This document shows positions 44,154-61,693 of a stretch of 64,000 nucleotides of DNA, in pieces. Source of the DNA: Ideonella sp. (lineage in GTDB: Bacteria > Pseudomonadota > Gammaproteobacteria > Burkholderiales > Burkholderiaceae_C). The position numbers and the translations under genes were made by a program. The notes under the pieces are model-generated. The model made no database searches. It had not been told where the DNA came from and saw only the letters and a list, made by a program, of their open reading frames with translations. The stretch covers positions 248,001-312,000 of the forward strand of contig JABTUC010000001.1 of NCBI GenBank assembly GCA_015075545.1, in the 5' to 3' direction. Each line of letters starts with the position of its first letter. Position 1 is the stretch's first letter.

Positions 44154-45239
44154 CTACGACGGCAGGAAGTCGACCGGCCAGGACACGACCATCACGTCGA
44201 CGTCCTTGTTGCCGAAGTCGAACTGCCGGATGCGTGCCAGCAGCTTGCGCTCGAGCTCCGAGGCCTTCAGCTCGCTGGACAGCACGCGAACGTCGACCAC
44301 CTCGCCCGACGGCGCGATCTTGAGCTCGACCACCACCTTGCCCTGCAGCGACGGATCGTCGCGCAGCGCGCGGTTGTAGAGCGCGTAGATCGCGCCCTTG
44401 TTGCGCTCGAACACGAGCTTGATCTCTTCGATCGAGCGGCTGGCCTTGCCGCTGCCGCTCTTGTGCAGCGTGCCGCCGCGGCCGGCGCCCTTGCCGTCGC
44501 CCTTGACGCCGCCGCCGCCCGCGCCACCGCCACCGCCGCCGCCGGCCACCCCCTCGACCAGCGTGGTGGCGCGGCCCGCGAGGCCGCCGCCGCCGGTGTT
44601 GCGGCTGTAGGCCGCGGTGTTGATGCCGCCGGAGCCGTTGGTGGCGTTGGAGGTGATGAGCGCGCGCACCGGGATGCCGGCTTCGTTGCCGGGGCCCACG
44701 CCCGGGCCGACGCCCGTACCGACGCCCTTGCCCTGCTTGATCTCCTGATTGAGCTGCACCGCCACCGGCGCGCCGCGGATCTCGGCGATCTGCTCCTTCA
44801 TCGCCAGCAGGCCGACGCCGGCGGCCCTGCGGCGCGCACCGTCGACCTCGCCGGGCGGCTTGTTCGGCACCGGCCGCCGCGCCTCGGGCACCGGCTGCTT
44901 CACCGTCTCGGGCTTCGGATCGTCTGGCTTCTTCGGGTGCGCTGCCGCCGGCTGCTCCTCGGCCTTATTCTCGACCTTGACCGGCGGCGGTGGCGGCGCC
45001 ACCTCGCGCTCGAGCACGATCTTGGCCAATTGCGGCGGCAGCTCGGCGACCTGCGTGCGGTCGTGCTCCGGCTTGGGCAACAGCAGGAACAGCAGGCACA
45101 GCAGCGTGCTTGCGATCAGCACGCGGTTGCGGATGCGCCTGAAGCGCGCGTTGTCGGCCAGCGACTCGGCCCACGGCAGCACCGAGACGCGGAACGAGAT
45201 CGCGTGGCTGCCGGCGCCGGCAGCGGCAAGGGCCCTCAT
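44154..45239 (-). CDS. TonB-like protein with AgmX/PglI C-terminal domain
   Basis: A 361-residue inner-membrane protein: cytoplasmic N-terminus, one helix (about 40-56, VLIASTLLCLLFLLLPK), a Pro-rich periplasmic stretch (PPPPPVKVEN), a Gly-rich linker with a run of GGGGGGGAGGGG near residues 230-241, and a C-terminal domain (about 270-360: IEEIKLVFERNKGAIYALYN ... FDFGNKDVDVMVVSWPVDF) of the AgmX/PglI type, which is TonB-like and in Myxococcus belongs to gliding-machine proteins. The ATG overlaps the stop of exbD (ATGA). It is the last gene of the large operon and would reach from the motor to envelope partners. Confidence 0.85.
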   Translation of the reverse strand: MRALAAAGAGSHAISFRVSVLPWAESLADNARFRRIRNRVLIASTLLCLLFLLLPKPEHDRTQVAELPPQLAKIVLEREVAPPPPPVKVENKAEEQPAAAHPKKPDDPKPETVKQPVPEARRPVPNKPPGEVDGARRRAAGVGLLAMKEQIAEIRGAPVAVQLNQEIKQGKGVGTGVGPGVGPGNEAGIPVRALITSNATNGSGGINTAAYSRNTGGGGLAGRATTLVEGVAGGGGGGGAGGGGVKGDGKGAGRGGTLHKSGSGKASRSIEEIKLVFERNKGAIYALYNRALRDDPSLQGKVVVELKIAPSGEVVDVRVLSSELKASELERKLLARIRQFDFGNKDVDVMVVSWPVDFLPS

Positions 45240-45730
45240 GTCTCGAACCTCTGCCGCACCGCGAACGAGACGTCGGTGAAGTTGGCGCGCGCGCTGGTGA
45301 CCATCACCTTGCGCAGCAGGCGGTAGGGGATGTCCTTGTCGCCCATGATCGTGACGGCGGCCTTGCTGGCCTGGTTCTTCTCGCGGATCACCTGCCGCTT
45401 GGACAGCAGCTCGAGCTCGGCCTTCAGCGCCGGGATCACGTCGTCGCCGGTCTTCATCACGTCGGCGACGTCGGCCACCTTGCGGCCCTCGACGATGATC
45501 TCGGCGCCGCTGATGGTAACCACGATGGTCTCGCGCGGGTGCGTCTCGGCGGTCGACTCGGGCAGTTTGACGGCCTTGTAGCTCGGCAGCGTCTCGACTT
45601 CGGTGGCGCTCGACAACAGGAAGAAGATCAGGATCGTGAAGATGTCGATCAGCGACACCAGGTTCAGGTCGAGCTGCTGCTTGTTGCGCTCCTTGCGGGC
45701 GGCGCGCTTCTGGATCGGCGTGAGGTTCAT
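45236..45730 (-). CDS. ExbD/TolR-family protein 1 (keeps membrane Asp)
   Basis: A 164-residue stator subunit with a short cytoplasmic N-terminus, one helix (NLVSLIDIFTILIFFLLSS, about 23-41) and a periplasmic domain. Asp29 inside the helix is the proton-carrying residue of ExbD/TolR/MotB-type proteins. The periplasmic part (AETHPRETIVVTISGAEIIV, VTIMGDKDIPYRLLRKVM) follows the TolR fold. It lies 7 bp after the second ExbD gene and is coupled to the TonB-like gene. Known of the family: with TolQ/ExbB it converts proton flow into motion of a partner protein. Confidence 0.88.
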   Translation of the reverse strand: MNLTPIQKRAARKERNKQQLDLNLVSLIDIFTILIFFLLSSATEVETLPSYKAVKLPESTAETHPRETIVVTISGAEIIVEGRKVADVADVMKTGDDVIPALKAELELLSKRQVIREKNQASKAAVTIMGDKDIPYRLLRKVMVTSARANFTDVSFAVRQRFET

Positions 45731-45737
45731 CGCGCGC

Positions 45738-46268
45738 TCACCCCTGGCTGCGTCCGTTGGACGCCGCGGCGCCCTTGGTGCGCAGCGGCGCGTCGCCCAC
45801 CGACACCTCGGGGAAGAGATCGACTCGCACCAGCTTGGGCCCGCCGTTGGCGCTGCGGCCGCTGCGCACGGCGTCCATCACGTGCACCAGCACCTCGTAC
45901 GAGGTATCGGGCTCCGACAGCACGGTGGCGGTGCGCGTGTCGGGAAACTTCTGCTTGATGCTCTGCATCAGCACGTTCAGCGCCTTGAAGTCGTGATGGC
46001 CTTCCTTGTTGTCGATGCGCTGGATCAGCCCGCCGATGCGGTCGCCGACCTCGAGTGCCTCGGGCCGGATCACGATCTCGAGCTTGAGGTCGTTGCCCTT
46101 GAGCTGCTCGAGCTTGCTGTTCGATTGCGCGGGCAAGGTGAGGTCCATCACCGCCAGCCGGGTGAACACCGCGGTCGACAGCAGGAACGGTACCAGCACC
46201 ACGATCAGGTTGATGAACGCGGTGACCTCGAGCGCGGCCACTTCCTTGCGCAGGCGTCTGACTCGCAT
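45738..46268 (-). CDS. ExbD/TolR-family protein 2 (membrane Asp replaced by Asn)
   Basis: A 176-residue TolR-like subunit. Its helix reads EVTAFINLIVVLVPFLLSTA (about 14-33), where the position of the conserved Asp is Asn20. The periplasmic domain is longer than in protein 1 (SKLEQLKGNDLKLEIVIR, FPDTRTATVLSEPDTSYEVL). Two different TolR-type genes behind one TolQ gene is also the arrangement of aglR-aglQ-aglS in Myxococcus. The missing Asp means this subunit probably cannot carry protons itself. It lies 37 bp after the TolQ-like gene. Confidence 0.85.
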   Translation of the reverse strand: MRVRRLRKEVAALEVTAFINLIVVLVPFLLSTAVFTRLAVMDLTLPAQSNSKLEQLKGNDLKLEIVIRPEALEVGDRIGGLIQRIDNKEGHHDFKALNVLMQSIKQKFPDTRTATVLSEPDTSYEVLVHVMDAVRSGRSANGGPKLVRVDLFPEVSVGDAPLRTKGAAASNGRSQG

Positions 46269-46305
46269 GGCGGTCTCGCGATGAGCCGAAGTTAGCTTGC
46301 GTCGC

Positions 46306-46962
46306 TCAGCGCGCGGCCGGCACCGCTTCGGACTTCAGGCGCTGCACCAGGTTCAGGAAGCTGATCTTGGCGGCCTCGAGGCCGTCGACGATCTCGGCCG
46401 TGCGCGCCTGCAGGAAGGCGTGGATCAGCAGGAACGGAATCGCCACCATCAGCGCGAACGCGGTGTTGTTCATGGCGATCGAGATCGACGCCGACAGCAT
46501 CTCGGCCTTCTCGGCCGGGTTGACCTGCGCCACCGCGGTGAAACCCTTGATCAGGCCGATGATCGTGCCCAGCAGGCCCACCAGCGTGATCACGTTGGCG
46601 AAGGTCGCGATGTAGTGGGTTCGCTTCTCCAGCCGCGGCACGATCTCCATCATGCCCTCTTCCATCGCGGCGTCGATGTCCTCGCGGCGCGCCGGGCTCT
46701 GCATGCGCTGCAGGCCGTTGGCGACGATCTTGCCGATCGCCGCGTCGGACTTGCCCGACACGTGCTGCGCCTCCTTGAACTTGCCGTTCTGCAGCATCGG
46801 CAGCATGTGCTCCCACAGCTTGCGGTTCTCGGCGCGAGCACGGTTGAGGAAGACGAAGCGCTCGATCGCGATCGCCAGGCCCAGCGCCATGATCAGGATG
46901 CTGGGGTAGATGAACAGGCCGCTGTCCTGGAAGAACTTCACCGCGGTGTCGAACGCACTCAT
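46306..46962 (-). CDS. MotA/TolQ/ExbB proton channel family protein
   Basis: A 218-residue three-helix inner-membrane protein. Helix 1 is about 13-32 (GLFIYPSILIMALGLAIAI), followed by a long cytoplasmic loop with the RREDIDAAMEEGMMEIVPRL segment, then helix 2 (IATFANVITLVGLLGTIIGL, about 120-140) and helix 3 (AMNNTAFALMVAIPFLLIHA, about 162-182) with the conserved Thr. These are the TolQ/ExbB signatures. ATG 46962 has AGGAG eight bases upstream; a GTG at 46965 is adjacent. It forms the channel with the two ExbD proteins downstream. Confidence 0.9.
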   Translation of the reverse strand: MSAFDTAVKFFQDSGLFIYPSILIMALGLAIAIERFVFLNRARAENRKLWEHMLPMLQNGKFKEAQHVSGKSDAAIGKIVANGLQRMQSPARREDIDAAMEEGMMEIVPRLEKRTHYIATFANVITLVGLLGTIIGLIKGFTAVAQVNPAEKAEMLSASISIAMNNTAFALMVAIPFLLIHAFLQARTAEIVDGLEAAKISFLNLVQRLKSEAVPAAR

Positions 46963-47026
46963 CACTCACTCTCCTGTCGTCGATCTGCTGGGCAGTCTGA
47001 GAATCCGATGGCTGAAGCGGTTGCGA

Positions 47027-47305
47027 TCACTTCGGCGCCGTCGTCGGCTGCAGCATCGCGTCGTAGCGCACCTGGCGGCGGAACACGTCGCGGTCGACCG
47101 GCGCCAGCACCTCGTCGAGCACGCCGCCGGGGGCACGGCCCGACAAGTCGCCCGGCAACGGCTTCTTCCACGGCACGATGTAGAGCACCTTGGGCAGTTC
47201 GCGGTTGCCGATGATCTGCGTGCGGTCGATGTCGGCACGGTCCTGCGCCAGCACGGGCAGCGCAGCCACGGCGATCGACGCGACGAGCGGATGCACTCGC
47301 ATCAT
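47027..47305 (-). CDS. Small exported protein of the TolQ/TolR operon
   Basis: A 92-residue protein with a signal peptide (MMRVHPLVASIAVAALPVLA, cleavage about residue 21) and a mature part containing DRTQIIGNRELPKVLYIVPW and DRDVFRRQVRYD. I know this pattern only as an unnamed protein beside TPR and TolQ/TolR genes. Its ATG overlaps the stop of the TPR lipoprotein gene (ATGA). Its conserved IIGNRELPK core and position suggest a fixed part of the machine. Confidence 0.7.
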   Translation of the reverse strand: MMRVHPLVASIAVAALPVLAQDRADIDRTQIIGNRELPKVLYIVPWKKPLPGDLSGRAPGGVLDEVLAPVDRDVFRRQVRYDAMLQPTTAPK

Positions 47306-48027
47306 TGCTGCTCCTTCAGGCTGAGCGCGACGCGGTCGTCCTTGCGGTTCTTGAGGTCGACCACCCACTTGGCGACGGCGGCATCGCTGCCGGCCAGCAC
47401 GAGGTACTGGTCGTACAGCGCCAGCGCGCGCTTGCGATCCTGCAGGTAGAGGTCGTTCAGGATGCCGAGGTTGAGCAGCGGCGCCGCATAGGTCGCATCG
47501 AGCGCGATGGCGCGCTCGTAAGCGTCGCGCGCCTTCGCGAACTGGCCCTGCTGGCGATACGTGATGCCGAGCTGGTTGTGGAACACCGCCTGGCGCGGGC
47601 TCACCTGCACCGCCTTCTCGAGTGCGGCGGCCGATTCCGGCAGCTTGCCGGCCTGGCGATAGAGCAGCCCGAGGTTGGCGTGCACGCCGCCGAGCTCGGG
47701 GTTCGATTGCACCAACGCCTTCAACTGCGCGGCCGCCTCGTCGTTGCGGCCGGCGCGCATCGCACGGCGCGCGTTGTCGAACGCCGCCTGCGCGCGCGGG
47801 TCCACCGGCGGCTCGGCTTGGACTTGCGCCTGGGCCGCCGCCGATGCGGCGGGCGCGGCCGTCGCCGCCGCCTGCGCCGGCGCAGCGGCGGGCTCTGCCT
47901 GCGCGCCGACCGCCTGCTTGACCGCGGCGATCGGGTCGGGCAGCGACGCGCAGCCCGACAACGCCGCCAGCGCCGCGGGCAGTGCCAGCACGGCGAGGCG
48001 GGGTCCGATCGGGTCAACGAATCGCAT
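47302..48027 (-). CDS. TPR lipoprotein
   Basis: A 241-residue lipoprotein: lipobox ALSGC gives Cys26, then an Ala/Gln-rich linker (about 45-75) and three to four TPR units (about 80-205) such as ARRAMRAGRNDEAAAQLKAL, GVHANLGLLYRQAGKLPESA and NQLGITYRQQGQFAKARDAY. TPR lipoproteins of this kind serve as outer-membrane scaffolds, for example GltE in the Myxococcus gliding machine. It overlaps the upstream TPR gene by 14 bp. Confidence 0.85.
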   Translation of the reverse strand: MRFVDPIGPRLAVLALPAALAALSGCASLPDPIAAVKQAVGAQAEPAAAPAQAAATAAPAASAAAQAQVQAEPPVDPRAQAAFDNARRAMRAGRNDEAAAQLKALVQSNPELGGVHANLGLLYRQAGKLPESAAALEKAVQVSPRQAVFHNQLGITYRQQGQFAKARDAYERAIALDATYAAPLLNLGILNDLYLQDRKRALALYDQYLVLAGSDAAVAKWVVDLKNRKDDRVALSLKEQQ

Positions 48028-50830
48028 CGATCACGCTCTCACTGCGTTCCAACTTGCCGTAACGCACCGGCCTCAGCGCGGCCAGCGACTTGAAGCTCTC
48101 CTGCACCCACTTGTCGTAGATGCCCGAGGCGGCGCGCTTGGCGTTGACCTCGTGCAGTTCGGTGGCCTTCTCTTCGAACGGGAACGCCTGCTCCTCGAGC
48201 ATCACGTTGTACTGTTCGAGCTCGGCCTTATTCAACTTTTTCGGCCGCTGCGAGGAGAGCATAGCTTTGCCGAAGTCCTGATACAGCGCGGCGGTGTGAT
48301 AAGTCGCTGCCGTCGTGATGTCGGCCACGCCGTAGTTGGCGGCCGCGGCATAGGCCTGCAGCGCTTGTTCCATCTTTGTTTTCTTCAGTTTCAGGTTCTT
48401 CGCCAGCGGCTCGACCAACGCTACTTTTCGATACGCCTCGGCCACCGGCTCGGCCATCGCCAGCGCCGCGGTGCCGCCGAGGTAGCGCGTGCGATCGGTG
48501 CGCTTGGCGCCACCCGCGAGATCGAGCTGATGGATCTCCTTCATCAGCGCGAACTCGCGCGCATGGTTGCCGTCGGCCTTGGCCATCTGCGCCAGCCGCC
48601 AGCGCACCTCGACGCTGGTTTCGAGCGAGCCGGGGTAGAGCTTCAGGTAGCGTTCGTACGCGCGCGCCGCGCTGCTGCGCGAGCCGCTCTTTTCGTACAG
48701 CTCGGCGGCCTGCCACAGCGACGACTGCGCGAGCTTCGGATCCTTGCTGTTGGCCGCCAGGCGTTCGAACTCGACGGCTGCCTGCGCGCCCTGGCCCTTT
48801 TCCAGATACGCCAGCGCCAGCTTGGGGCCGACCTCGGCGGCCAGCGGGTGGTTGGGGTTGGCGCGACGAAACTCCTCGAGCGCGCGGATCGCGGCGTCCC
48901 AATCCTTCAGCGCGATCAGCGCCGCGGCGGCGTCGTACTGCGCCGTGACGCGGATGCTCGAGGTTGGCGCGACCGCGGCCACGCGGTCGAAATGACCGAC
49001 CGCCCCGCGCAGATTGCCCGCGGCGCGCGCCTGCTCGCCCTGCTTGTAGACCGAGGCGGCGAGGCGTTCGACCAGCTCGTTGCGCTTGGCGTCGCGCTCG
49101 GGCGTCAGCGCGAGCACTTCGCGGTAGCCCTTCTCGGCGTCGGCGAATGCCGCCTTGTCGAAGGCGGTGTGCGAGATCACCGTCCAGGCAACGCGGCGCT
49201 GCTCGGGTGCCGCCGGCGGGTCGAGCTTCAGCACCATCTGCGCGACCTCGGTGGCGCGTGCGCCGTCCTTCAACGTGAACAGTTTTTCCGACGCGTTGGT
49301 CAGCACCGCGCCCGTGCGCGGGTCGGCGGGGAAGGCCTTGGCGAAGCGCAGTGCGCTGTCGATGCCGCTGCGCTGCAAGGCCGGCAGCTCGGCGGCACCC
49401 GCCGCCTTCTCGAGGCCGGCGTAGGCGAGCAGCGCCGAGTAGCCGGCGTCGGCGCTCTTGGCGTGCGCCGGGTAGCCGTAGGCGGTCTTCTCGTACTCGG
49501 TGGCCGCTTCGAGCAACTGTTTGTCCTCGAACAGCAGCTCGGCGAGCAGGAAGTTGTTCTGCGCGGTGTCGGGGTCGTCCGGGAACGAACCGATGTACGC
49601 GCGGTACCAGCGCACCGCCTCCTGGTAATCGGCCGACGCCTTGCTCTTCTGCGCCAGCGCGTGATAGTGGCGCGCCAGCTCGGTGAGGTGGGCCTTGACC
49701 AGCGGCCGCGCGCGCTCCCAGCCCTCGGGGTTGGCCTTGCGGAACTCGCTGTCGATGCCGTAGCGCGAGACGTAGTCCTTCTTCGCCTCGAGCGCCAGCG
49801 TCGCGAAGCCGTTGGCCTGGTAGATCTCGATCACCCGCGCCTGCAGTTGCGGTGCCTGCGCGTGCAGCGGCTGCTGCTTGACGAAGGCGCCGAAGGTGTC
49901 GGCGGCATCCTTGACGCGGTCTTGCTTGATGTACAGCTCGCCGAGCTGCTGGTAGACGCGGAACTCGTAGCCGCGGCGCACGTCGTCGGTGATGTACGGC
50001 GGGATCGACGCCGCGCCCTGCAGGTTCTGCAGGCTGATGCTCATGACGCGGAAGGTGTCGTCGACCAGCTCGCGGTCGGCGCGCGTCAGCTCCTGGATGT
50101 CGGCCAGCTCGGTGGCGTCGCTGCGCAGCGTGCTCTTGCGGTCGAGCACGCCGAAGAACGAATGCAGCGCCTCCTCGAGCCGCGCCTGCTTGAACAGCGA
50201 CCAGCCGTGCATGTACAGCGCGCGCTCCTGGAACGGCGTGCCCGAGTCGGCCTTCATCACCGCGGCGAAAGCGGCTTCGGCGCGCGGGTAGTCGCGCGTC
50301 GCGAACAGGATCTCGCCGCGGCGGAACTGCGCCTCGTCGAGATACTGGGTCTGCGGGTACTCGGCCACCAGCCGGTCGAGCGTCTTGATCGCCGCTTCGA
50401 GCTTGCCGTCTTGCTCCTGCGCGCGCGCGAGCTGGTAGAGCACACGGTCGTTGCCCGGATCCTGCGGGTGCTCCTTCAGGAACTCCTGGTAGCGCGCCAC
50501 CGCGAGGCTGTAGTCGGGGCTCGCGGTCGCGCCGCTCAGCACGCGGCTGTCGGCGGCGTCCATCTCCAGGTCGCCGAGCCGTCGCATCGCCTCGGCGCGC
50601 TGCTGCGCCTTCGGCGCGATCTCGAGGAACTTGCGGTAGGCGACGATCGCGTCGCCGACGTCGGCCTTGATGCCCTTGTCGTCGGGCACGTCGGCCTCGC
50701 GGCCCGACATCGTCTTCAGCGTCGGCGCCTGGTCGTCGTCGTTCGCGCGCTTGCTGGCGCAGCCGGCCAGCGCCAGCGCCGCAGCGAGCGCCAGCAGGCG
50801 CAGCGTGCGGGCCTCAGGGCTTGGCCACAT
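48014..50830 (-). CDS. Large TPR lipoprotein
   Basis: A 938-residue protein with lipobox ALAGC (Cys24) and a nearly continuous array of TPR-like helices, for example YSLAVARYQEFLKEHPQDPG, AAIKTLDRLVAEYPQTQYLD and AARAYERYLKLYPGSLETSV. The C-terminal 250 residues (EIHQLDLAGGAKRTDRTRYL onward) are less repetitive. It has the size and layout of the large TPR scaffold proteins (AgmU/GltD-like) next to TolQ/TolR genes. Its start overlaps the preceding gene by 17 bp and its end overlaps the next by 14 bp, so synthesis of the three TPR proteins is coupled. Confidence 0.85.
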   Translation of the reverse strand: MWPSPEARTLRLLALAAALALAGCASKRANDDDQAPTLKTMSGREADVPDDKGIKADVGDAIVAYRKFLEIAPKAQQRAEAMRRLGDLEMDAADSRVLSGATASPDYSLAVARYQEFLKEHPQDPGNDRVLYQLARAQEQDGKLEAAIKTLDRLVAEYPQTQYLDEAQFRRGEILFATRDYPRAEAAFAAVMKADSGTPFQERALYMHGWSLFKQARLEEALHSFFGVLDRKSTLRSDATELADIQELTRADRELVDDTFRVMSISLQNLQGAASIPPYITDDVRRGYEFRVYQQLGELYIKQDRVKDAADTFGAFVKQQPLHAQAPQLQARVIEIYQANGFATLALEAKKDYVSRYGIDSEFRKANPEGWERARPLVKAHLTELARHYHALAQKSKASADYQEAVRWYRAYIGSFPDDPDTAQNNFLLAELLFEDKQLLEAATEYEKTAYGYPAHAKSADAGYSALLAYAGLEKAAGAAELPALQRSGIDSALRFAKAFPADPRTGAVLTNASEKLFTLKDGARATEVAQMVLKLDPPAAPEQRRVAWTVISHTAFDKAAFADAEKGYREVLALTPERDAKRNELVERLAASVYKQGEQARAAGNLRGAVGHFDRVAAVAPTSSIRVTAQYDAAAALIALKDWDAAIRALEEFRRANPNHPLAAEVGPKLALAYLEKGQGAQAAVEFERLAANSKDPKLAQSSLWQAAELYEKSGSRSSAARAYERYLKLYPGSLETSVEVRWRLAQMAKADGNHAREFALMKEIHQLDLAGGAKRTDRTRYLGGTAALAMAEPVAEAYRKVALVEPLAKNLKLKKTKMEQALQAYAAAANYGVADITTAATYHTAALYQDFGKAMLSSQRPKKLNKAELEQYNVMLEEQAFPFEEKATELHEVNAKRAASGIYDKWVQESFKSLAALRPVRYGKLERSESVIDAIR

Positions 50831-52688: not shown

Positions 52689-52694
52689 GGCGGT

Positions 52695-53578: not shown

Positions 53579-53602
53579 GGCGCTCTCTCGGGTGAATCAG
53601 GG

Positions 53603-54763: not shown

Positions 54764-54977
54764 AGCCGCCTCCCTGCACGCCGTTGGCACCGCGTGCGCC
54801 TTCGCGCACCTCGCGCACGTGCTCGTTGTGCTTGGCCGCCATCGCCTGGCGCTGCGCCTGCATGATCGGGTCGGCCAGGCGCTCGCGCTCGTAGGGCTTG
54901 ACCCACGGCTCGGGGAACGCGCAGCCGGCGAGCGCGCACACCGCGCCGGCGCACACCAGCAGTCGAGGCAGTTTCAT
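54750..54977 (-). CDS. DUF4266 small lipoprotein
   Basis: A 75-residue lipoprotein: lipobox ALAGC (Cys19), FPEPWVKPYERERLADPIM motif, a helical QAQRQAMAAKHNEHVREVRE stretch and the invariant tail GGGCGCN. These features define the DUF4266 family, which is nearly always next to DUF3570. The tail with two cysteines in a Gly context could be a metal- or haem-interaction or modification site. Its start overlaps the TlpA stop (ATGA). Confidence 0.88.
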   Translation of the reverse strand: MKLPRLLVCAGAVCALAGCAFPEPWVKPYERERLADPIMQAQRQAMAAKHNEHVREVREGARGANGVQGGGCGCN

Positions 54978-55498
54978 TCTTTGAGCAACTCCCGGATCTG
55001 TCGGTCGTAGGTGTTCTCGTAGCCGCTCTGGTAGCCGCGGTGCAGGTAGCGCACGCGGCCGTCGCGGTCGATCAGCACGGTCGACGGCATCGCGCTCAGG
55101 TCGTACTGGCGGCTGACGCGCTTGTCGGCGTCGGGCAGCACCGGGAAGGTGACGCCGAGCTTGCTGGCCACACCGGCGGCCTGCGCCGTGTCGTCGTCGA
55201 CATTGACGCCCAGCAGCACGAAGCCAGAGGCCTTGTACTTCTCGTACAGCTTGTTCAGATGCGGCATCTCCTGGCGGCACGGCCCGCACCAGGTGGCCCA
55301 GAAGTTGACCAGCACGACGCTCCCGCGCTGCTCGCCCAGGCGCAGCTTCTGGCCGTCGAGCGTGCGCAGCGTGAAGTCCGGCGCCGGTGCCGAGGGCGCC
55401 AGCGGCGCCGCGACGGCCAGCGTCACGCCGCCGGCCAATGCCAGCGCCAGCGCCGTGCGCCACGGTCGAGGAAGTGCTTTCGAAGTGCTGTGCATCAT
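54974..55498 (-). CDS. TlpA-like periplasmic thioredoxin
   Basis: A 174-residue exported thioredoxin. A signal peptide (about 13-31) leads into the AhpC/TSA-redoxin domain with PAPDFTLRTLDGQKLRL, the active-site VNFWATWCGPCRQEMPHL (CGPC), LLGVNVDDD and the cis-proline in SAMPSTVLID. The family reduces cysteines in the periplasm, often to allow haem attachment at CXnCH motifs. That matches the two CXnCH lipoprotein genes upstream and the Cys-rich DUF4266 tail downstream. Confidence 0.9.
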   Translation of the reverse strand: MMHSTSKALPRPWRTALALALAGGVTLAVAAPLAPSAPAPDFTLRTLDGQKLRLGEQRGSVVLVNFWATWCGPCRQEMPHLNKLYEKYKASGFVLLGVNVDDDTAQAAGVASKLGVTFPVLPDADKRVSRQYDLSAMPSTVLIDRDGRVRYLHRGYQSGYENTYDRQIRELLKE

Positions 55499-55515
55499 GG
55501 GTTGGTCAGCGATAG

Positions 55516-56169
55516 TCAGAAATAGAAGCTCACCCCGCCGGTCCACTCGAGGTTCTTGGTGCTCTCGTTCTTGCCGAGGATGTCGAGGTCGAACAGATGC
55601 TGGCGCATGTCCATCTGCACCGAGAAGCGGTCGTGGAACAGCACGCGGATGCCGGCGCCGTAGTTGATCGTCTGGCGGTTGCGATGGTTGACCTTGTCGC
55701 TGGCGATGAAGTTGGTGTTGCCGATGCCCGCGATCACGTACAGCGACGACGCGAACGCGGTGTTGCGGCCCCAGAACACCTCGCCGGGCAGGATGTTGTA
55801 GCCCGCCGAGAGGTTGTAGTACTTCAGCGTCTCCTGCGGCTGCGCGAAGATGCCGCCGGGCAGGATCTGGCGGAAGTTCTCGTCGCTGACCTTGGTCTGT
55901 GCGTACACCGCCTGCACGAAGATGTCTTCGCTGACGTGGTAGCCCAGGCGCACGCCGGTGACCAGGCTGGAGCCGAAGTTCTGCATCGAGTAGGTGCCGA
56001 CGTAGGCGCCGATCTCGAAATCCTTCGACGGGTACTTCGGCAGCTTGACCTCGCGCCGGTCGACCTGCGGCTGGATCACCTGCTCGTTGGCCGGCTGTGC
56101 CGGGGTGGTCTGGGCAGCGCACCAGGTACAGACGGTGGCGAGGGCAAGGGCGATGACGTGGGTGCGCAT
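55516..56169 (-). CDS. Outer-membrane beta-barrel protein 1
   Basis: A 217-residue outer-membrane protein with a signal peptide (ends CAAQ, about residue 20), a short basic linker (VIQPQVDRREVKLPKYPSKD) and about eight beta strands, from FEIGAYVGTYSMQNFGSSLV to the C-terminal WTGGVSFYF ending in Phe. The VRLGYHVSEDIFVQAVYAQT and SVQMDMRQHLFDLDI segments fit the outer-membrane beta-barrel domain seen in myxobacteria and relatives of that type. It is 10 bp from the SH3/barrel gene upstream and forms a pair with it. Confidence 0.85.
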   Translation of the reverse strand: MRTHVIALALATVCTWCAAQTTPAQPANEQVIQPQVDRREVKLPKYPSKDFEIGAYVGTYSMQNFGSSLVTGVRLGYHVSEDIFVQAVYAQTKVSDENFRQILPGGIFAQPQETLKYYNLSAGYNILPGEVFWGRNTAFASSLYVIAGIGNTNFIASDKVNHRNRQTINYGAGIRVLFHDRFSVQMDMRQHLFDLDILGKNESTKNLEWTGGVSFYF

Positions 56170-56179
56170 GGCGGTCAGC

Positions 56180-56968
56180 TCAGAAGAAGAAGGCCAGGCC
56201 GAGCGTCCAGGCTCGGTACTCGCCAGTGCGCGTGTCGCCGACGAAGGCGGTGTACAAGGAGTAGTCGGCACGCGCGATGAAACGGTCGGTCAGGTGGTAG
56301 CGCACCCCGACCGAGGCGTTGGACAGGTTGGCGTTGGTCGGCAGCGCCCCCACCAGCGTGGGGTTGGGCAGGTTCTTGAACTTGCCCACGCCGATCGCGA
56401 AGAACGGCGACAGCCGCACATCGGACAACGGCTCGGCCAGCAGGTTGACGTGCCAGATGTCGGTACCCGAGAAGGTGCCCTGCACCTGGCCGATCGTGCC
56501 CTCGACATGCAGCGTCTCCGACAGCCGATAGCTGGTCCACAACTTGAGCATCGGCTCCTTCTTGAACTTGCCCCACGCCGCGCCCATCTGCAACCGCCGC
56601 GCCAGGTAGTCGTCGAGCGCGATGTCGCGGAAGGTCTTCTGCACCCCGGCCGCAGTGAAGGTGTTGGCCAGTTGCGAGCGGTGCACCCAGCCCTCCTTGC
56701 CGCCGTCGGTGCGCACCTTGAACCAGTCGGTCGAGCGCAGTTCCACCTGCACCCACTCGTCGCGCGCCACTACGAAGAAGACCGGAAAGCCCCTTCCGGG
56801 GCCTGTGTGCAGTTCGAGGTACGGGTCGGCCACGCGCAGCCGCTCGGGCTCGTCGGCCGCCTGCGCGGGCGGCGAACCCAGCAGCCCGAACATCAGGATC
56901 GCGAGGCATGCGGTGATGAAGGTCACAAGCGCCCGGTCCAGGGCCCGGTTCGCCGGCAGCCGGTTCAT
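56180..56968 (-). CDS. SH3-domain outer-membrane beta-barrel protein 2
   Basis: A 262-residue exported protein. Signal peptide ends at AQA (about residue 37); residues about 45-105 form a bacterial SH3 domain (VADPYLELHTGPGRGFPVFF, WVQVELRSTDWFKVRTDGGK, GWVHRSQL), and residues about 110-262 form an outer-membrane barrel like the one in the next gene, with VGVRYHLTDRFIARADYSLY and terminal WTLGLAFFF. SH3 domains bind peptidoglycan or peptides, so this barrel could be anchored to the wall. Its ATG overlaps the stop of the CX4CH lipoprotein gene. Confidence 0.85.
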   Translation of the reverse strand: MNRLPANRALDRALVTFITACLAILMFGLLGSPPAQAADEPERLRVADPYLELHTGPGRGFPVFFVVARDEWVQVELRSTDWFKVRTDGGKEGWVHRSQLANTFTAAGVQKTFRDIALDDYLARRLQMGAAWGKFKKEPMLKLWTSYRLSETLHVEGTIGQVQGTFSGTDIWHVNLLAEPLSDVRLSPFFAIGVGKFKNLPNPTLVGALPTNANLSNASVGVRYHLTDRFIARADYSLYTAFVGDTRTGEYRAWTLGLAFFF

Positions 56969-57606
56969 TGCGTCCTGCAGTTGCTCGAACTCGGCGGCGT
57001 CGCCGTGAACATGCCGTAGGTGGCGGTGCTGAACTCGTCGCTGCCGCTCGGTGCGGGGTTGTTGATCCAGTACTGGATCGGCAGCGAGTTCGGATCCTGC
57101 GCACTGGCGAAGATCTGCCCGCCGCCGTGCAGCACGCCGTTGACCATCGGCTTGACCAGGATGCGCGACGTCAACGGGGCGCCGAACACCACCTCACCCT
57201 GAGCGGAGTAGAAGTTCTTGTACATGTCGCTGGCCCGGATGATGTCCGCTGTGTTGGCCGCATTGGCGAGGTCGATCGGCTGCGCGTTGCCTATGACACG
57301 AAATGCGCCGCCGGTGCCGTTGGTGTTGTCGTGGCAACCCGACGCGGCGCAGGTGTTGGTCGCCGTGCTGCCGTCTTCGAAACGGATCGGCAGCGGCCTG
57401 ATCAGCACCGGAAACACGCAGTACTGGAAGTAGGCGAAGGCGAGCTTCTGGCTGCCGGTGAGGCCGGGGTTCTGGATCGAGGCCGGGTTGTCCAGCGGGT
57501 TACTGCCGCCGCCGCACGAGGCCAGGGCCCAAACGGCAGCGGCCGCTGCGACGGTGCGGCGCACCGTCGCAGCGGACCGCCGGGTCCGCTGCGTGTTCTT
57601 CGTCAT
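56965..57606 (-). CDS. Cytochrome-like lipoprotein with a CX4CH motif
   Basis: A 213-residue lipoprotein: lipobox ALASC (Cys31), then a single CAASGCH motif (86-92). CX4CH is a known variant haem-attachment motif (for example in cytochrome c3). A later VNGVLHGGGQIF supplies histidine as a possible distal ligand, and the order C..CH, SRILVKP, HGGG, IQYWI matches the C-terminal module of the large haem protein upstream, so the two are probably paralogous modules. Its ATG overlaps the stop of that gene. Confidence 0.7.
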   Translation of the reverse strand: MTKNTQRTRRSAATVRRTVAAAAAVWALASCGGGSNPLDNPASIQNPGLTGSQKLAFAYFQYCVFPVLIRPLPIRFEDGSTATNTCAASGCHDNTNGTGGAFRVIGNAQPIDLANAANTADIIRASDMYKNFYSAQGEVVFGAPLTSRILVKPMVNGVLHGGGQIFASAQDPNSLPIQYWINNPAPSGSDEFSTATYGMFTATPPSSSNCRTQ

Positions 57607-60600
57607 CGTCTGTTGGCCCTCGCGTTGGCGGTCTGCACACTGCAGCCGGCGGCGATCCACGCACTGATGGTGTTGTAGTTGGCGCTGCCTGCCGGCAGCG
57701 GTGCCGGTGCCGACGACGCACCCGACGGGTGCGGCGCGGTCGACGGCCGCGACAGCAGGTAGTTCGACGCCGGGTTGCAGGTGTCGGAGATCATCGTCAG
57801 CGTGACGTTGAGGTCGCCCTCGGGGCTGCCGGTCAGCACGTAGCGGTTGCCCTGGAACGACGTGCCCGGGGTCACCGTCGAGCCCGTGATGCCGCCGGCC
57901 TGGTGGCAGCTCGCCGCGCAGGTGCTCATCAGGATCGGGTGCACCGATTGGTTGAACACGTCTTCGCTCAGCGGGCTGGCAGCCATCGCACCGCTGTCGA
58001 ACGGATCGTTGAAGTACTGGCCGCCGAGGTCCATCCATTCGGTGACCAGGCGCAGCTCGGCCTTGTTCAGCATCCCCGCGTGGTTGATGCTGGGGTTCGG
58101 GTGCGCGGCCAGCGCCTCCGCACCAGCCTTCAACACTTCGCCCCACAGGATCTCGCCGAGCCGGCTGGCGCGCGTCATGCCCAGCGCGTTGTCAGGGTCG
58201 GTGATCACCAGCGGCACGCCGCGCACCACCTCAGGCTCGCCTTCGCGCACACGGATCTGCGGCAGCCCGGTGGCGGAATCGATCACCGGGTCGCCGACCA
58301 GCAGTTCCTCGTACGAGGTCATGCGGCCGGTGCCCGAGGTGGTCGAGCGCAGGTCGAGCTTGGCCGGGTCGTTGTGGCAGTTGGTGCAGGTGTTGGCGCC
58401 GCGGTTGCGCGTCCAGATCGGCGCGATGTGCTGCTCGTAGTTGATCAGGCCTCTCACCGGCGGTGTCATCGAAGGATCGAGGTCGTCGGCCGGGTTGGCG
58501 TTGCCGGTGTAGCGGATCTCGATCGACGGGCGCGCCACGCCGCCATTGGCCGTGTCGGCCCAGATGTCGCTGGACACCATGTTGGGCTGCACTTGCAGCG
58601 CGGCCGGGAACAGGCGCGTGCGCGCCGAGGCCATGGTCTCGCCCTGCAGCGTGGTCATGCTCGCCAGCCATGCTGTGGGGCGGTTGGTCGGATCGACGAG
58701 CGAGCCCGAGTTCAGCGACGCGCCACGGCGCGGGCTGTGGCAGCCGTCGCAGGTGCGGCGTTCGCCCGGGCGCACCTGGATCCAGTTGAAGTGGGTCTGG
58801 ATCGCGCGGCCCTTGGAGTCGACGATCGCCAGGCCGAGCGGCGTGTCGGCCGGCACGTGCAGCTTGAACGAACCGTCGGGCTCGACCGGCGCATAGCCGA
58901 GGATCTGCTGCTGCTCGAACTCGGTCTCGCCGATCGCCTCGCGGCCGCCCATCATGTTCGACGGCGGCGCTACCGCGCGGAACGCGCGCACGAAGCGCGC
59001 CGGCGCGCACTGGTAGGCCGGGTCGGCCGGGTTGCGGATGCGGCGCAGGTCGGCCACCGACGCGCGCGTTTCGGTGGCTTCGCTCGACGGCGTGGTCTGC
59101 ACGATGGCGGTGTTGCCGCACGCCGCGGGCTTCTCGGCCGCGGTGTCGGCCAGCATCGGGTTGCCCATGCGGTTCAGGCCGTCGGTGTCGTAGACGCTAC
59201 GCACCTCGATCAGGCCCACGTTGGCCGCGGCCAGTTGCTCGTCCACCGCGGTCGCCTGCGCCACCTGCGGCACGGGCCGCGCCTGCAGCGCGATCGGGTC
59301 GACGTACATGGAGCCAGACGGCGGCGAGGCGACCAACTGCTGGGTGCCGCGCTGCGGGTCGAACATGTAGACGGCATACGACGCCGGCACGTTGTCGTTC
59401 ACCGAGACGCCGTTGGGCAGCACGGCGGGTGCGCCGCGCATGCGGTCATCCTCTCCCAGCGCGTCGATCTCCGCCTGCGTCAGCGTGGCGCACGACACCA
59501 CCACCGTCGGCTTGCCCGGCTCGGTGCGCTCGACCTCGCACGGGCGGTACGACGCCAGCACGCGGTTGGTGCCGTCCCACAGCGGGTACGGCGTCGTCAC
59601 GCGGCCGTAGCGCGAGAAGCCACGCTCGTCGTTGAGCGCCTGCAGCGTCACCTGGCGCTGGCCGGCGTTGGCCGGCAGGCCGGTGTGCGCGGGCGTGCCG
59701 TACTCGGAATAGTTGGCGGCGTCGATCATCATCAGCGCGCCGCCTTCCTGAGTGCGCGACAGCGGCATCAGCGACGACGTGAGCTGGCCGTTGTATGGGC
59801 CGGCGACGTCCATCTCGCGCGGGTGCAGGAAGCTGTTGCCCGGGCTCAACGCGCCGTAGAAAACGAACATGTCGGTGCCGTCGGGCTTGACCTGGAACAC
59901 CGCGAAGCGGTTCTTCTGGCCCACGTGCTCCCAGCGCGAGAACATGATGTTGCCGTTGTCGCGCACCACCGGGTTGCGGTCGTGGCTCTGGTTGACCGAG
60001 ATCTGGCGGATGTCGGTGCCGTCGTCCTTCATCGTGTGCAGGTTCAGCACGCGCTCGCGCTCGTACTCGTCGGTTGCGAAGTACGGCTGTGCACGGCCGA
60101 TCGCCTGGGCCTGCAGCGCCGCGCTCGTGGTCTGGCGGTTCGACGCGAACACGAAGCCGCCGCCCGGCAGGTAGTACGGGTCGACGTCGTCGGCGGTGGT
60201 CGAGCTGGTGACGCGGCGCAGCGTGCCGCCTGCGAAGCCGCCGGCCGGCAGCGCGTACTCCCAGATGTTCCAGCGCCCGGTGCACTGCGCGTTGTTGGCC
60301 GGCGGGCAGTTCATCGCGAAGACGATCTTCTTGCCGTCGTACGACACCTCGGGGTCCGACACGTCGCCGGTGCCACGGGTGTAGCCCGCGGTGATGTTGT
60401 GCTCCGGCGCCGCCGGCGAGGACTTCTCGCGCACGATGAGGTCGCCGCCAGGCGCGAACGGCGTGCCGTCGGTCGGGTTCTGGCTCAGCGTGTTGGCGCG
60501 CTTGGCATACACGATCGCCACGTCGCCGTTGACGGCCAGCGTGTCGTTGCTGTCGCCCGAGCCCGAGCACCCTGCCAGCCACAGCGACGCTGCCAGGGTG

Positions 60601-60641
60601 CACAGCACCGGTTGGATCGTTTTCTCGATTTGCACTCGCAT
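57603..60641 (-). CDS. Hydrazine-synthase-alpha-like multihaem lipoprotein
   Basis: A 1012-residue lipoprotein (lipobox WLAGC, Cys25). Residues about 35-450 form a beta-propeller of TolB-like blades, for example DPEVSYDGKKIVFAMN and DVDPYYLPGGGFVFASN, with the HzsA middle-domain motif GNIMFSRWEHVGQKNRFAVF. The C-terminal half carries two CXXCH haem motifs (CDGCH 631-635; CTNCH 752-756) and one CAASCH (908-913, one residue longer than canonical). Many non-anammox proteobacteria have such HzsA-like proteins with unknown activity; the beta and gamma hydrazine synthase subunits are absent here. ATG 60641 follows apbE by 44 bp. Confidence 0.82.
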   Translation of the reverse strand: MRVQIEKTIQPVLCTLAASLWLAGCSGSGDSNDTLAVNGDVAIVYAKRANTLSQNPTDGTPFAPGGDLIVREKSSPAAPEHNITAGYTRGTGDVSDPEVSYDGKKIVFAMNCPPANNAQCTGRWNIWEYALPAGGFAGGTLRRVTSSTTADDVDPYYLPGGGFVFASNRQTTSAALQAQAIGRAQPYFATDEYERERVLNLHTMKDDGTDIRQISVNQSHDRNPVVRDNGNIMFSRWEHVGQKNRFAVFQVKPDGTDMFVFYGALSPGNSFLHPREMDVAGPYNGQLTSSLMPLSRTQEGGALMMIDAANYSEYGTPAHTGLPANAGQRQVTLQALNDERGFSRYGRVTTPYPLWDGTNRVLASYRPCEVERTEPGKPTVVVSCATLTQAEIDALGEDDRMRGAPAVLPNGVSVNDNVPASYAVYMFDPQRGTQQLVASPPSGSMYVDPIALQARPVPQVAQATAVDEQLAAANVGLIEVRSVYDTDGLNRMGNPMLADTAAEKPAACGNTAIVQTTPSSEATETRASVADLRRIRNPADPAYQCAPARFVRAFRAVAPPSNMMGGREAIGETEFEQQQILGYAPVEPDGSFKLHVPADTPLGLAIVDSKGRAIQTHFNWIQVRPGERRTCDGCHSPRRGASLNSGSLVDPTNRPTAWLASMTTLQGETMASARTRLFPAALQVQPNMVSSDIWADTANGGVARPSIEIRYTGNANPADDLDPSMTPPVRGLINYEQHIAPIWTRNRGANTCTNCHNDPAKLDLRSTTSGTGRMTSYEELLVGDPVIDSATGLPQIRVREGEPEVVRGVPLVITDPDNALGMTRASRLGEILWGEVLKAGAEALAAHPNPSINHAGMLNKAELRLVTEWMDLGGQYFNDPFDSGAMAASPLSEDVFNQSVHPILMSTCAASCHQAGGITGSTVTPGTSFQGNRYVLTGSPEGDLNVTLTMISDTCNPASNYLLSRPSTAPHPSGASSAPAPLPAGSANYNTISAWIAAGCSVQTANARANRR

Positions 60642-60685
60642 GACCGTCTCCCTGACGCTTGTTGAATGACTTGTCGAATGCGGAT

Positions 60686-61693
60686 TCACGCCACGCGCTG
60701 CCGCTGGGCAGCGGCGCTGCCCGCGGCCGCCAATCCGGCCGAGAAGTGCAGCGCTCCGGTGGCGTCGACGACGACCGCATCGGCGCCCGGCTGCGACTGC
60801 ACGAGTCGCATGCCGCGCGCCAGGCCCATCACGAACACGCACTTCGAGAGGGCTTCGGCGGTCAGGCCGTCGGCAGCGAGGATCGTCACGCTGTGCAGCG
60901 CACGCGGCGACGTCCCCGTCTTGGGATCGATCAGATGGTGGTGGCGCACGCCGTCGCGCTCGAAGTAGCGCTCGTAGTCGCCCGAGGTCGAGATCGAGGT
61001 GTCCTGCAGCGGCAGCACCGCCACCACGCGCTGGCGCTCGCGCGGGTCGCGCACCGCGATCGACCACGGGCGGCCGCGGCGGTCGCCCAGCACGTGGCTG
61101 TCGCCGCCGGCGGCAACGACCGCGTGCTCGACACCCAGGTGCTTGAGGATCTTGATGCAGTTGTCGACCGCGTGCCCCTTGGCGAAGCCGCCGAGGTCGA
61201 TGCGCATGCCCTCGCGCGCGAAGCCGATCGTGCGCTCGCGCGGCTCGAGCACCAGGTGCTGCCAGCCGATCTGGCCGCGCGCGCGCTCGATCGCCGCGGC
61301 GTCGGGCGCGATGCCCTCGCGGTAGTCGTAGAGATGACCGACCGCCGCGTAGCTGATATCGAACGCGCCGTCGGACAGGCGCGAGAAGTGCAGCGAGCGC
61401 TCGATCAGGTCGAACATCTCGCCGCAGATCGGCACCGCGCGGTCGGCCGCTTCGCGGTTGATCAGCGACAGCTCCGACTCGGGCTTGAACGGGCTCATCA
61501 AGTGATCGATACGGTGCATCTCGGCCATCACCGCCGCGATCGCCTGTTCGGCCAGCGCCTCGTCCTCGCTCCACAACTCGGCGTGGATCGCGGTGCCCAT
61601 GATCGCCTCGTCGCGACTGAACCAGCGGCCATGCGCGGCCGCCGCCGGGGGACCGGCGGGGCGCGGGCGCAACAGGGGCAGGTTCAAACGCAT
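60686..61693 (-). CDS. apbE: FAD:protein FMN transferase (ApbE)
   Basis: A 335-residue ApbE-family protein that attaches FMN to Ser/Thr residues of extracytoplasmic proteins or makes Mg-FAD chemistry in the periplasm. Family motifs: MGTAIHAELWSEDEALAEQA, SLINREAADRAVPIC, SDGAFDISYAAVGHLYDYRE, IDLGGFAKGHAVDNCIKIL, VVAAGGDSHVLGDRRGRPW and TSTSGDYERYFERDG with HHHLIDPKTGTSPRALHSVT. No clear export signal or lipobox is visible at the N-terminus. It is the first gene of the 17-gene operon; no obvious flavinylation target motif was found in the neighbours. Confidence 0.88.
   Translation of the reverse strand: MRLNLPLLRPRPAGPPAAAAHGRWFSRDEAIMGTAIHAELWSEDEALAEQAIAAVMAEMHRIDHLMSPFKPESELSLINREAADRAVPICGEMFDLIERSLHFSRLSDGAFDISYAAVGHLYDYREGIAPDAAAIERARGQIGWQHLVLEPRERTIGFAREGMRIDLGGFAKGHAVDNCIKILKHLGVEHAVVAAGGDSHVLGDRRGRPWSIAVRDPRERQRVVAVLPLQDTSISTSGDYERYFERDGVRHHHLIDPKTGTSPRALHSVTILAADGLTAEALSKCVFVMGLARGMRLVQSQPGADAVVVDATGALHFSAGLAAAGSAAAQRQRVA

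What the first reader, a model, noticed from the sequence alone, without database searches (positions are those of the whole stretch)
44154..61693. 17-gene envelope machine: Agl-Glt-like stator joined to haem, thioredoxin and ApbE genes
One TolQ/ExbB, two TolR/ExbD, an AgmX/PglI-type TonB-like protein, TPR lipoproteins and two outer-membrane barrels match the parts list of the Myxococcus gliding/transport machine (AglRQS plus Glt proteins). Here the same strand also holds DUF3570, DUF4266, TlpA, two CXnCH lipoproteins (one HzsA-like) and ApbE, with overlapping or very close gene ends throughout. Seen: gene order, domains, overlaps. Known: TolQ/TolR pairs drive partners with the proton gradient. 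Inferred: an energised machine working on, or fed by, extracytoplasmic redox proteins, in an organism with no other gliding genes in view.
Basis: partly seen in the sequence, partly recalled or inferred. Interest (0 to 1): 0.9.

Follow-up and report, generated by a model that had tools for sequence, protein, structure and literature searches.

The report
Proton-driven envelope machine with redox proteins
A 17-gene block in a Burkholderiales bacterium joins genes for a proton-powered cell-envelope motor, of the kind Myxococcus uses to glide, to genes for outer-membrane flavin, haem and thiol proteins, and the same pairing recurs in many bacterial families, which gives a lead on what this motor does in bacteria not known to glide.

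Summary
All 17 genes are on the minus strand (44154-61693) with the stated domains, and the block is conserved. In a sample of 369 genomes of the window's class (Gammaproteobacteria in GTDB, by inference), the core-specific gene at 52949-53578 scores 170 bits or more in 54 genomes of 29 families. DUF4266 is in 52 of those 54, within 25 kb in 40 (30 same strand, 10 divergent). An HZS_alpha protein of 50 bits or more is in 47 of the 54, against 4 of the other 315.

Nine genes resemble the known "core complex" of Agl-Glt/Nfs machines, of unknown function outside Myxococcus relatives (Luciano 2011). The two small barrels resemble GltB/GltA in layout. DUF3570, DUF4266, TlpA and ApbE are a known flavinylation set (Méheust 2021). 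Their union with an HzsA-like multihaem lipoprotein was not found in the held papers. Cores without these redox genes also exist.

Best reading: a proton-driven trans-envelope machine whose outer-membrane platform is a thiol-flavin-haem redox complex. Substrate and direction of electron flow are unknown. Unlikely: hydrazine synthase (tyrosine ligand missing), complete gliding system. New variant of a known kind.

The parts
60686..61693 (-). ApbE, FAD:protein FMN transferase; the only full-length ApbE found in the window's genome assembly
   Evidence: PF02424 5.7e-79; own genome gives this copy and one fragment
57603..60641 (-). HzsA-like multihaem lipoprotein (HZS_alpha middle domain with CDGCH, then CTNCH, then CX3CH)
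   Evidence: PF18582 4.4e-21; PDB 5c2v_A profile match 1.1e-21; first two CXXCH motifs invariant in 19 aligned rows
56965..57606 (-). Small lipoprotein with one CX3CH motif (213 aa)
   Evidence: sequence; no Pfam family; found in 49 of 80 related loci
56180..56968 (-). SH3 domain plus outer-membrane beta-barrel, GltB-like place and layout
   Evidence: PF08239 over cut-off, OMP_b-brl and TIGR04565 below cut-off; profile match to the next barrel, hhalign 97.8%, 7.3e-13
55516..56169 (-). Outer-membrane beta-barrel, OMP_myx_plus family, GltA-like place
   Evidence: TIGR04565 1.2e-40, 139 bits over cut-off 60
54974..55498 (-). TlpA/ResA-like thioredoxin
   Evidence: PF08534 5.3e-33; ResA model 3.7e-36, below cut-off
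54750..54977 (-). DUF4266 small lipoprotein ending GGGCGCN
   Evidence: PF14086 7.4e-21
53603..54763 (-). DUF3570 protein, candidate FMN acceptor with DMVSNAS and TTAS sites; start codon uncertain
   Evidence: PF12094 3.2e-35; motif in relatives
52949..53578 (-). 209-aa secreted protein of no known family, hallmark of the core (here called g209)
   Evidence: no family over cut-off; 66% mean column identity over 14 rows
52704..52948 (-). 245-bp non-coding gap with GC-rich inverted repeats between g209 and the first TPR gene
50814..52703 (-). TPR protein 1 (about 629 aa, start codon uncertain), GltC-like in size and place
   Evidence: PF14559; start chosen
48014..50830 (-). TPR lipoprotein 2 (938 aa), GltD-like in size and place
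   Evidence: TPR families; over YbgF and BamD model cut-offs
47302..48027 (-). TPR lipoprotein 3 (241 aa), GltE-like
   Evidence: NF033758 GltE 1e-13, below cut-off
47027..47305 (-). 92-aa secreted protein (GltF-like place and size)
   Evidence: no family
46306..46962 (-). TolQ/ExbB/AglR-type stator
   Evidence: PF01618 4.4e-26
45738..46268 (-). ExbD-like protein 1, Asn in place of the membrane Asp
   Evidence: PF02472 1.5e-10; column counts
45236..45730 (-). ExbD-like protein 2, membrane Asp conserved
   Evidence: PF02472 4.6e-15; Asp in 97 of 97 rows
44154..45239 (-). TonB-like protein with AgmX/PglI tail (GltG/GltJ-like)
   Evidence: NF033768 3.4e-17, 62 bits over cut-off 40; TIGR01352 28.5 bits over 27.1

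Best explanation
The 17 genes encode one envelope-spanning machine of the Agl-Glt/Nfs class that carries an outer-membrane redox complex. The stator (TolQ/ExbB-like protein plus two unequal ExbD-like proteins) uses the proton gradient. The AgmX-tail protein passes the force through the periplasm. The 92-aa protein, three TPR proteins and g209 form the periplasmic scaffold. The force acts on an outer-membrane platform made of two paralogous small barrels (GltB/GltA-like) and the DUF3570 protein. ApbE attaches FMN to DUF3570. TlpA and the C-terminal Cys-Gly-Cys of DUF4266 pass electrons between periplasmic thiols and that flavin, and the HzsA-like and CX3CH lipoproteins carry them over c-type haems at or near the cell surface. 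Shown here: gene content, domains, conserved linkage, conserved redox motifs, relation of the two barrels to each other. Inferred: that the complex is physically one, that the flavin and haems are attached, that the redox proteins sit at the outer membrane, and that force and redox chemistry serve one task (most likely moving, opening or loading a surface redox complex, or handling a metal or polymer at the surface).
For: All 17 genes in 27 of 80 related loci, 26 on one strand. In 369 class genomes g209 reaches 170 bits in 54 genomes, 29 families; DUF4266 in 52 of 54 against 38 of 315 others; within 25 kb in 40, 10 of these divergent, so the neighbourhood survives rearrangement. HZS_alpha of 50 bits or more in 47 of 54 against 4 of 315; three of those four (G056, G193, G076) carry a lower-scoring g209, and in G056 it lies beside the HzsA gene (L155). 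All 27 long DUF4266 loci lie in genomes with strong g209; 1 of 13 short ones does. The labels 'with' and 'without' redox half change 3 times over 59 rows of a quick core tree. DUF3570 keeps D-x-x-[ST]-x-A-[ST] in most long loci. The window's genome (85% complete) gave no FMN_bind gene, an apparently broken DUF2271 and one full-length ApbE. The barrels are paralogs, as GltB and GltA are (PMC4488436, passages).
Against: No interaction, flavin, haem or motion was measured. 11 of 54 genomes have DUF4266 on another contig and 2 lack a match; some may be real separations, some contig ends. Cores without redox genes exist (17 of 19 lower-scoring loci), so the motor can do without them. The 170-bit limit was set after seeing the scores. 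The G of the published [ST]GA[ST] motif is mostly S or N here, and the tested DUF3570 came from Chlorobium. Window ApbE shows no clear signal peptide (by eye). L155 lacks TlpA and DUF4266, so the proposed thiol step is not always there. G017 keeps barrels, TlpA and DUF3570 but has no HZS_alpha match and has lost the flavin motif. Relation to AglRQS was not tested by a tree. The AgmX protein is also over the general TonB C-terminal model.
Confidence: 0.6

Rival explanations
1. Two functional units that are only co-regulated: the redox genes serve assembly or repair (disulfide reduction, haem loading) of the motor's outer-membrane parts, and pass no electrons to anything outside.
For: TlpA/ResA-type thioredoxins commonly serve cytochrome c maturation or disulfide reduction (established knowledge, not from a call). 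TlpA and DUF4266 are missing together in L155. Motor cores exist without the redox half.
Against: Three haem motifs in one protein, a dedicated ApbE and a member of an ApbE-substrate family are more than assembly would seem to need; none of the 27 long loci lies in a genome without strong g209.
Confidence: 0.2
2. A TonB-like uptake system in which the redox proteins reduce a metal (iron, copper) at the surface and the motor drives its import.
For: 25 DUF3570 clusters carry a VIT1 iron transporter (PMC8238504, passages). The AgmX protein is over the general TonB C-terminal model TIGR01352 (28.5 of 27.1 bits) and close to Pfam TonB_C (20.8 of 24.6).
Against: None of the 17 proteins hits a TonB-dependent receptor family in the listed matches; stator proteins fall far below ExbB, ExbD, TolQ and TolR cut-offs.
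Confidence: 0.15
3. A gliding motility machine, as in Myxococcus.
For: Most Glt/Agl counterparts have a candidate by order, size or partial profile hit.
Against: No Robl_LC7 (MglB-type) match in the 85% complete own genome; none of the 17 proteins hits a GltH, GltI, GltK or CglB model (the rest of the genome was not searched for these); Luciano 2011 argues that the core alone does not drive motility (PMC3169522, section 12).
Confidence: 0.03
4. A nitrogen enzyme: hydrazine synthase or a near relative.
For: HZS_alpha domain 4.4e-21 and 5c2v_A match.
Against: Full hydrazine_alpha model 59 bits against cut-off 800. The tyrosine ligand four residues after the CXXCH histidine (His587/Tyr591, PMC12607021, passages) is Arg in the window and not Tyr in any of the 19 rows (by eye). 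None of the 17 proteins hits a beta or gamma subunit family.
Confidence: 0.02

Closest known systems
Agl-Glt / Agl-Nfs machines of Myxococcus and their stand-alone 'core complex' (Luciano 2011 PMC3169522; Wartel 2013 PMC3858216)
   Same: One TolQ-type, two ExbD-type, TonB-like AgmX/GltG tail, TPR proteins, two paralogous barrels and a GltC-sized TPR protein; gene order can be read along gltB-gltA-gltC / gltD-gltE-gltF / aglRQS / gltG
   Different: Adds HzsA-like and CX3CH lipoproteins, TlpA, DUF4266, DUF3570, ApbE and g209; no MglB-type match in the genome; single operon-like block; first ExbD mostly without the membrane Asp
ApbE-DUF3570-thioredoxin-DUF4266 flavinylation clusters (Méheust 2021 PMC8238504)
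   Same: Same four families; CXC end of DUF4266; two [ST]xA[ST]-type sites in DUF3570
   Different: DUF3570 and DUF4266 are far closer to each other among long loci than to those of short loci, and are linked to a motor, HzsA-like protein and barrels; no DsbD in the block; middle G of the flavin motif mostly replaced
Hydrazine synthase alpha subunit (PDB 5C2V)
   Same: Middle domain aligns well, C-terminal motifs weakly
   Different: Tyr ligand absent, no beta/gamma partner found, lipoprotein, third haem motif in most Burkholderiales relatives
ExbBD-TonB and Tol-Pal
   Same: Proton-channel stator class; AgmX tail over the general TonB C-terminal model; large TPR protein over the YbgF model
   Different: Stator proteins far below the ExbB, ExbD, TolQ and TolR cut-offs; no TonB-dependent receptor, TolB or Pal match among the 17 proteins

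Membership tests
Agl-Glt/Nfs class (core complex) | One AglR-type and two AglQ/S-type stator genes with an AgmX/GltG-type TonB-like gene | tested here: met
   PF01618, PF02472 twice, NF033768 over cut-off; full GltG model NF033760 1.6e-9, 37 bits against cut-off 650
Agl-Glt/Nfs class (core complex) | Stator in the same clade as AglR/Q/S | not testable with these tools
Agl-Glt/Nfs class (core complex) | GltC, GltD, GltE TPR proteins | tested here: inconclusive
   GltE model 1e-13 under cut-off; GltC and GltD by size and order only (table in Luciano 2011)
Agl-Glt/Nfs class (outer-membrane platform) | Two paralogous OM barrels like GltB/GltA | tested here: inconclusive
   Barrels are paralogs, one is in TIGR04565 over cut-off; direct match to GltA/GltB not tested
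Myxococcus gliding system | MglA/MglB polarity module | tested here: not met
   Robl_LC7: 0 matches in the 85% complete own genome; MglA not searched
DUF3570-type flavinylation system | ApbE, DUF3570, DUF4266, thioredoxin-like genes together | tested here: met
DUF3570-type flavinylation system | Two [ST]GA[ST] sites in DUF3570 | tested here: not met
   Window has SNAS and TTAS; A-[ST] is kept, the G is not
ExbBD-TonB / Tol-Pal | Stator over ExbB or TolQ equivalog cut-off | tested here: not met
   TolQ 55 of 221 bits, ExbB 34 of 206
ExbBD-TonB / Tol-Pal | TonB-type C-terminal domain | tested here: met
   TIGR01352 28.5 bits, cut-off 27.1; Pfam TonB_C below cut-off. The AgmX/PglI tail model scores higher
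Hydrazine synthase | Tyr ligand at haem alpha-I and beta/gamma subunits | tested here: not met
   Arg at that place (ligand; numbering register inferred); no partner family among the 17 proteins

The most novel reading that the evidence does not exclude
A motor-driven redox organelle of the outer membrane: a 5:2-type proton motor mechanically moves or gates a surface complex that carries electrons from periplasmic thiols through a covalent flavin to surface haems, so that force and electron transfer are coupled. This would be a main, perhaps early, job of the Agl-Glt core in Gammaproteobacteria, with gliding and spore-coat building as other uses.
Probability: 0.28. Interest if true: 0.88.

Novelty: new variant of a known kind. 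Interest (0 to 1): 0.72.

Why it matters
Luciano 2011 and Wartel 2013 describe the Agl-Glt core as a complex of unknown function in Gammaproteobacteria, and Méheust 2021 calls the role of DUF3570-based electron transfer uncertain. Tying the two together, within 25 kb in 40 genomes of 25 families, gives each a concrete partner and makes the function testable in cultured Burkholderiales. If force and surface redox are coupled, it would be a new use of proton-driven envelope motors.

Tried and rejected
Rejected: ordinary TonB/Tol system, hydrazine synthase, gliding machine (see rivals). Chance neighbourhood: rejected. 'Every DUF4266 locus belongs here': rejected, 13 of 40 fetched DUF4266 loci are short clusters without barrels or HzsA. 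'Every core has these redox genes': rejected. One stand-alone core, L152, lies downstream of a molybdopterin/4Fe-4S/cytochrome b operon; its family mate L159 does not show this, so I did not read it as a second redox link. Relation of the CX3CH lipoprotein to the HzsA C-terminus: blastp 0.13, not supported. Solved relatives of g209 and DUF3570: none convincing (best 0.13 and 0.11). Tree: the first script failed on unequal row lengths and was repeated. There, five rows were labelled 'with' by hand because the other half was seen elsewhere in the genome or only in part; small partial HzsA hits at locus ends also counted; 12 rows were unlabelled, 2 set apart, and 25 'with' rows of L072-L125 left out (99 to 74). 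Taken against all other rows, label A needs 4 changes. Literature searches for the combined locus; none found in the held library, which lacks most subscription papers; supplements of Luciano 2011 were not read.
Full report
WHAT IS THERE. The minus strand from 61693 down to 44154 holds 17 open frames in a row. One search gives 16 junctions: 8 overlaps of 4-17 bp, 5 gaps of 7-37 bp, and gaps of 44, 64 and 245 bp. The 245-bp gap (52704-52948) lies between the 209-aa gene and the first TPR gene and is rich in inverted repeats. In 131 relatives the distance from the end of the 209-aa frame to the first residue that aligns with the TPR profile is at most 231 bp (median 105), so the window's gap is wider than in all of these. 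Lipobox-type ends are visible by eye in the HzsA-like, CX3CH, DUF4266 and two TPR proteins.

DOMAINS. ApbE 5.7e-79; HZS_alpha 4.4e-21; SH3 plus weak barrel; barrel TIGR04565 OMP_myx_plus 139 bits over cut-off 60; TlpA/ResA; DUF4266 7.4e-21; DUF3570 3.2e-35; a 209-aa protein with no family; three TPR proteins (the third hits the GltE model at 1e-13, below cut-off; the second is over the YbgF and BamD models, probably by summed repeats); a 92-aa protein with no family; MotA_ExbB 4.4e-26; ExbD twice; AgmX/PglI tail 62 bits over cut-off 40 and general TonB C-terminus 28.5 over 27.1. TolQ, ExbB, ExbD and TolR equivalog models are hit far below cut-off.

THE BLOCK IS OLD AND COHERENT. DUF4266 occurs in 90 of 369 class genomes, 123 matches (counted). 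The g209 profile (alignment A1, 14 rows) matches 82 of 369. At 170 bits or more, a limit set after seeing the scores, it marks 54 genomes in 29 families. Of these, 30 have DUF4266 within 25 kb on the same strand, 10 within 25 kb divergent, 1 at 29 kb, 11 on another contig, 2 nowhere. The two are G186, 81% complete, which still has HZS_alpha, and G017, whose core lies beside SH3-barrel, barrel, TlpA and a DUF3570 that has lost the flavin motif, without HZS_alpha (L171). DUF4266 is in 38 of the 315 other genomes. HZS_alpha of 50 bits or more: 47 of 54 against 4 of 315; at any score 47 against 10. Fisher values are tiny, but genomes are related, so family counts matter more: 25 families with the two halves within 25 kb, 8 of them with a divergent form. 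Of the 50 lower-scoring g209 matches, 1 has DUF4266 within 25 kb.

TWO KINDS OF DUF4266 LOCUS. I fetched about 10 kb on each side, where the contig allowed, of 40 of the 123 matches. 27 are long (HzsA, both barrels, DUF4266 and DUF3570 in all, TlpA in 25) and 13 short (DUF4266, DUF3570, TlpA; ApbE in 12). In 13 of the 27 the core lies in the same fetched stretch. All 27 long loci lie in genomes with strong g209; 1 of 13 short ones does, G044, which has a separate long locus.

TWO KINDS OF CORE. Of 19 lower-scoring g209 loci fetched, 17 show the core without HzsA, barrels, DUF3570 or DUF4266; one of these, L166, ends 1.4 kb upstream of g209, and L164 has a TlpA gene next door. Their upstream neighbours differ from locus to locus (read by eye, many look like housekeeping genes). 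L152 has a molybdopterin oxidoreductase, 4Fe-4S and cytochrome b set upstream, which L159 of the same family does not show. Two loci (G056, G193) have redox-half genes; L155 of G056 has HzsA, CX3CH, both barrels and DUF3570 but no TlpA or DUF4266. On a quick IQ-TREE of five core proteins, 74 rows, the labels 'with' and 'without' change 3 times over 59 labelled rows; long branches are flagged there, so this is indicative only.

NAMED RELATIVES. The genome-contig scan kept the best 80 of 542 confirmed hits, mostly Burkholderiales (Rhizobacter, Piscinibacter, Rubrivivax, Ideonella, Methylibium, Caldimonas, Sapientia) with some other Gammaproteobacteria (Steroidobacteraceae, Thiodiazotropha, Thiogranum). 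27 of 80 have all 17 genes, 65 at least one redox-half gene besides TlpA; all 44 loci of at least 19 kb do; of the 15 without, 14 have under 4.4 kb upstream of g209, and L146 has 8 kb with TlpA only. Within the window's own family 20 of 150 genomes have g209, so the block is patchy; in a phylum sample 9 of 249, all in the same class.

MATCH TO AGL-GLT. Luciano 2011 (PMC3169522: outline, passages, section 12) tabulates gltK-gltB-gltA-gltC, gltD-gltE-gltF-gltG and aglRQS, and describes a core of aglRQS + gltC, D, E, G plus one additional gene, clustered in Gammaproteobacteria, one Betaproteobacterium, Geobacter and Fibrobacteres, of unknown function. [quoted passage not shown] PMC4488436 (passages) shows that GltB and GltA are paralogous OM barrels that bind the TPR protein GltC, with about 80 and 45 N-terminal residues left out of the barrel prediction. 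In the window the two barrels are also paralogs (hhalign 97.8%, 7.3e-13), the first with an N-terminal SH3 domain, and a GltC-sized TPR protein lies four genes further on. Order and size then follow GltD, GltE, GltF (89 aa there, 92 aa here), AglR/Q/S, GltG. This gene-by-gene reading is inference from order, size and partial profile hits.

STATOR DETAIL. ExbD-like protein 2 has the membrane Asp in 97 of 97 rows; protein 1 has Asn in 86 of 99, Asp in 12, Ser in 1 (85, 12 and 1 of 98 without the window). So in most of these motors only one of the two ExbD partners has the residue expected to carry protons. PMC9389320 (passages) describes a conserved Asp in both AglQ and AglS, so this differs.

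REDOX DETAIL. Méheust 2021 (PMC8238504, passages) showed that a Chlorobium DUF3570 is flavinylated by ApbE at two [ST]GA[ST] sites, and described clusters with thioredoxin-like and DUF4266 proteins. The window protein has DMVSNAS and TTAS; most long-locus relatives keep D-x-x-[ST]-x-A-[ST] with S, N or G in the middle. The window's genome (85% complete) has one full-length ApbE, no FMN_bind match, and a partial DUF2271 with a stop inside beside an ApbE fragment, which leaves DUF3570 as the only intact candidate acceptor among the three families searched. All 34 genomes searched for ApbE have one; I chose these 34 from genomes with g209. The HzsA-like protein aligns with PDB 5c2v_A over the haem alpha-I region; two CXXCH are invariant in 19 rows, a third CX2-3CH is in 17 (by eye). 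The Tyr ligand of hydrazine synthase (PMC12607021, passages) has no counterpart. PMC12758564 (passages) reports more than 600 structural hits to HZS alpha, with no other experimentally confirmed function among the top hits.

MECHANISM. My commitment and its rivals are in the fields above. Shown: content, linkage, motifs. Inferred: one physical complex, electron path thiol to flavin to haem, location at the outer membrane, coupling of force to redox.

NOVELTY. Both halves are in print separately. I found no account of their union in the held library, which is not the whole literature; PMC12204202 (passages) discusses other unexplained tolQ/tolR loci.

Noticed in passing
window 52704-52948: 245-bp non-coding gap inside the block with several GC-rich inverted repeats (predicted fold about -158 kcal/mol), wider than the spacing in 131 relatives (42-231 bp); could be a repeat insertion, terminator or attenuator.
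   Followed up: partly
window 60686-61693 and relatives in L073-L131: By eye, ApbE of the Burkholderiales loci shows no clear signal peptide, while ApbE of other Gammaproteobacteria loci (e.g. L064, L110) does.
   Followed up: no
window 45738-46268: One ExbD-like protein has Asn where the membrane Asp is expected, in 86 of 99 rows; Asp is kept in 12 loci, L130-L151 subset and L171.
   Followed up: partly
L155, L153 (G056, G193): A variant with barrels and DUF3570 (and HzsA, CX3CH in L155) but without TlpA and DUF4266; its DUF3570 shows only one A-S site in place of two.
   Followed up: partly
L152 2779-9380: A core without the redox half lies downstream of a molybdopterin oxidoreductase / 4Fe-4S / cytochrome b561 gene set on the same strand.
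   Followed up: partly
G000:C1:1070376-1070825 (L192): Partial DUF2271 match with a stop inside, next to an ApbE fragment, in the window's genome.
   Followed up: no
G323 (same order): Four HZS_alpha matches in one genome with no g209 match.
   Followed up: no
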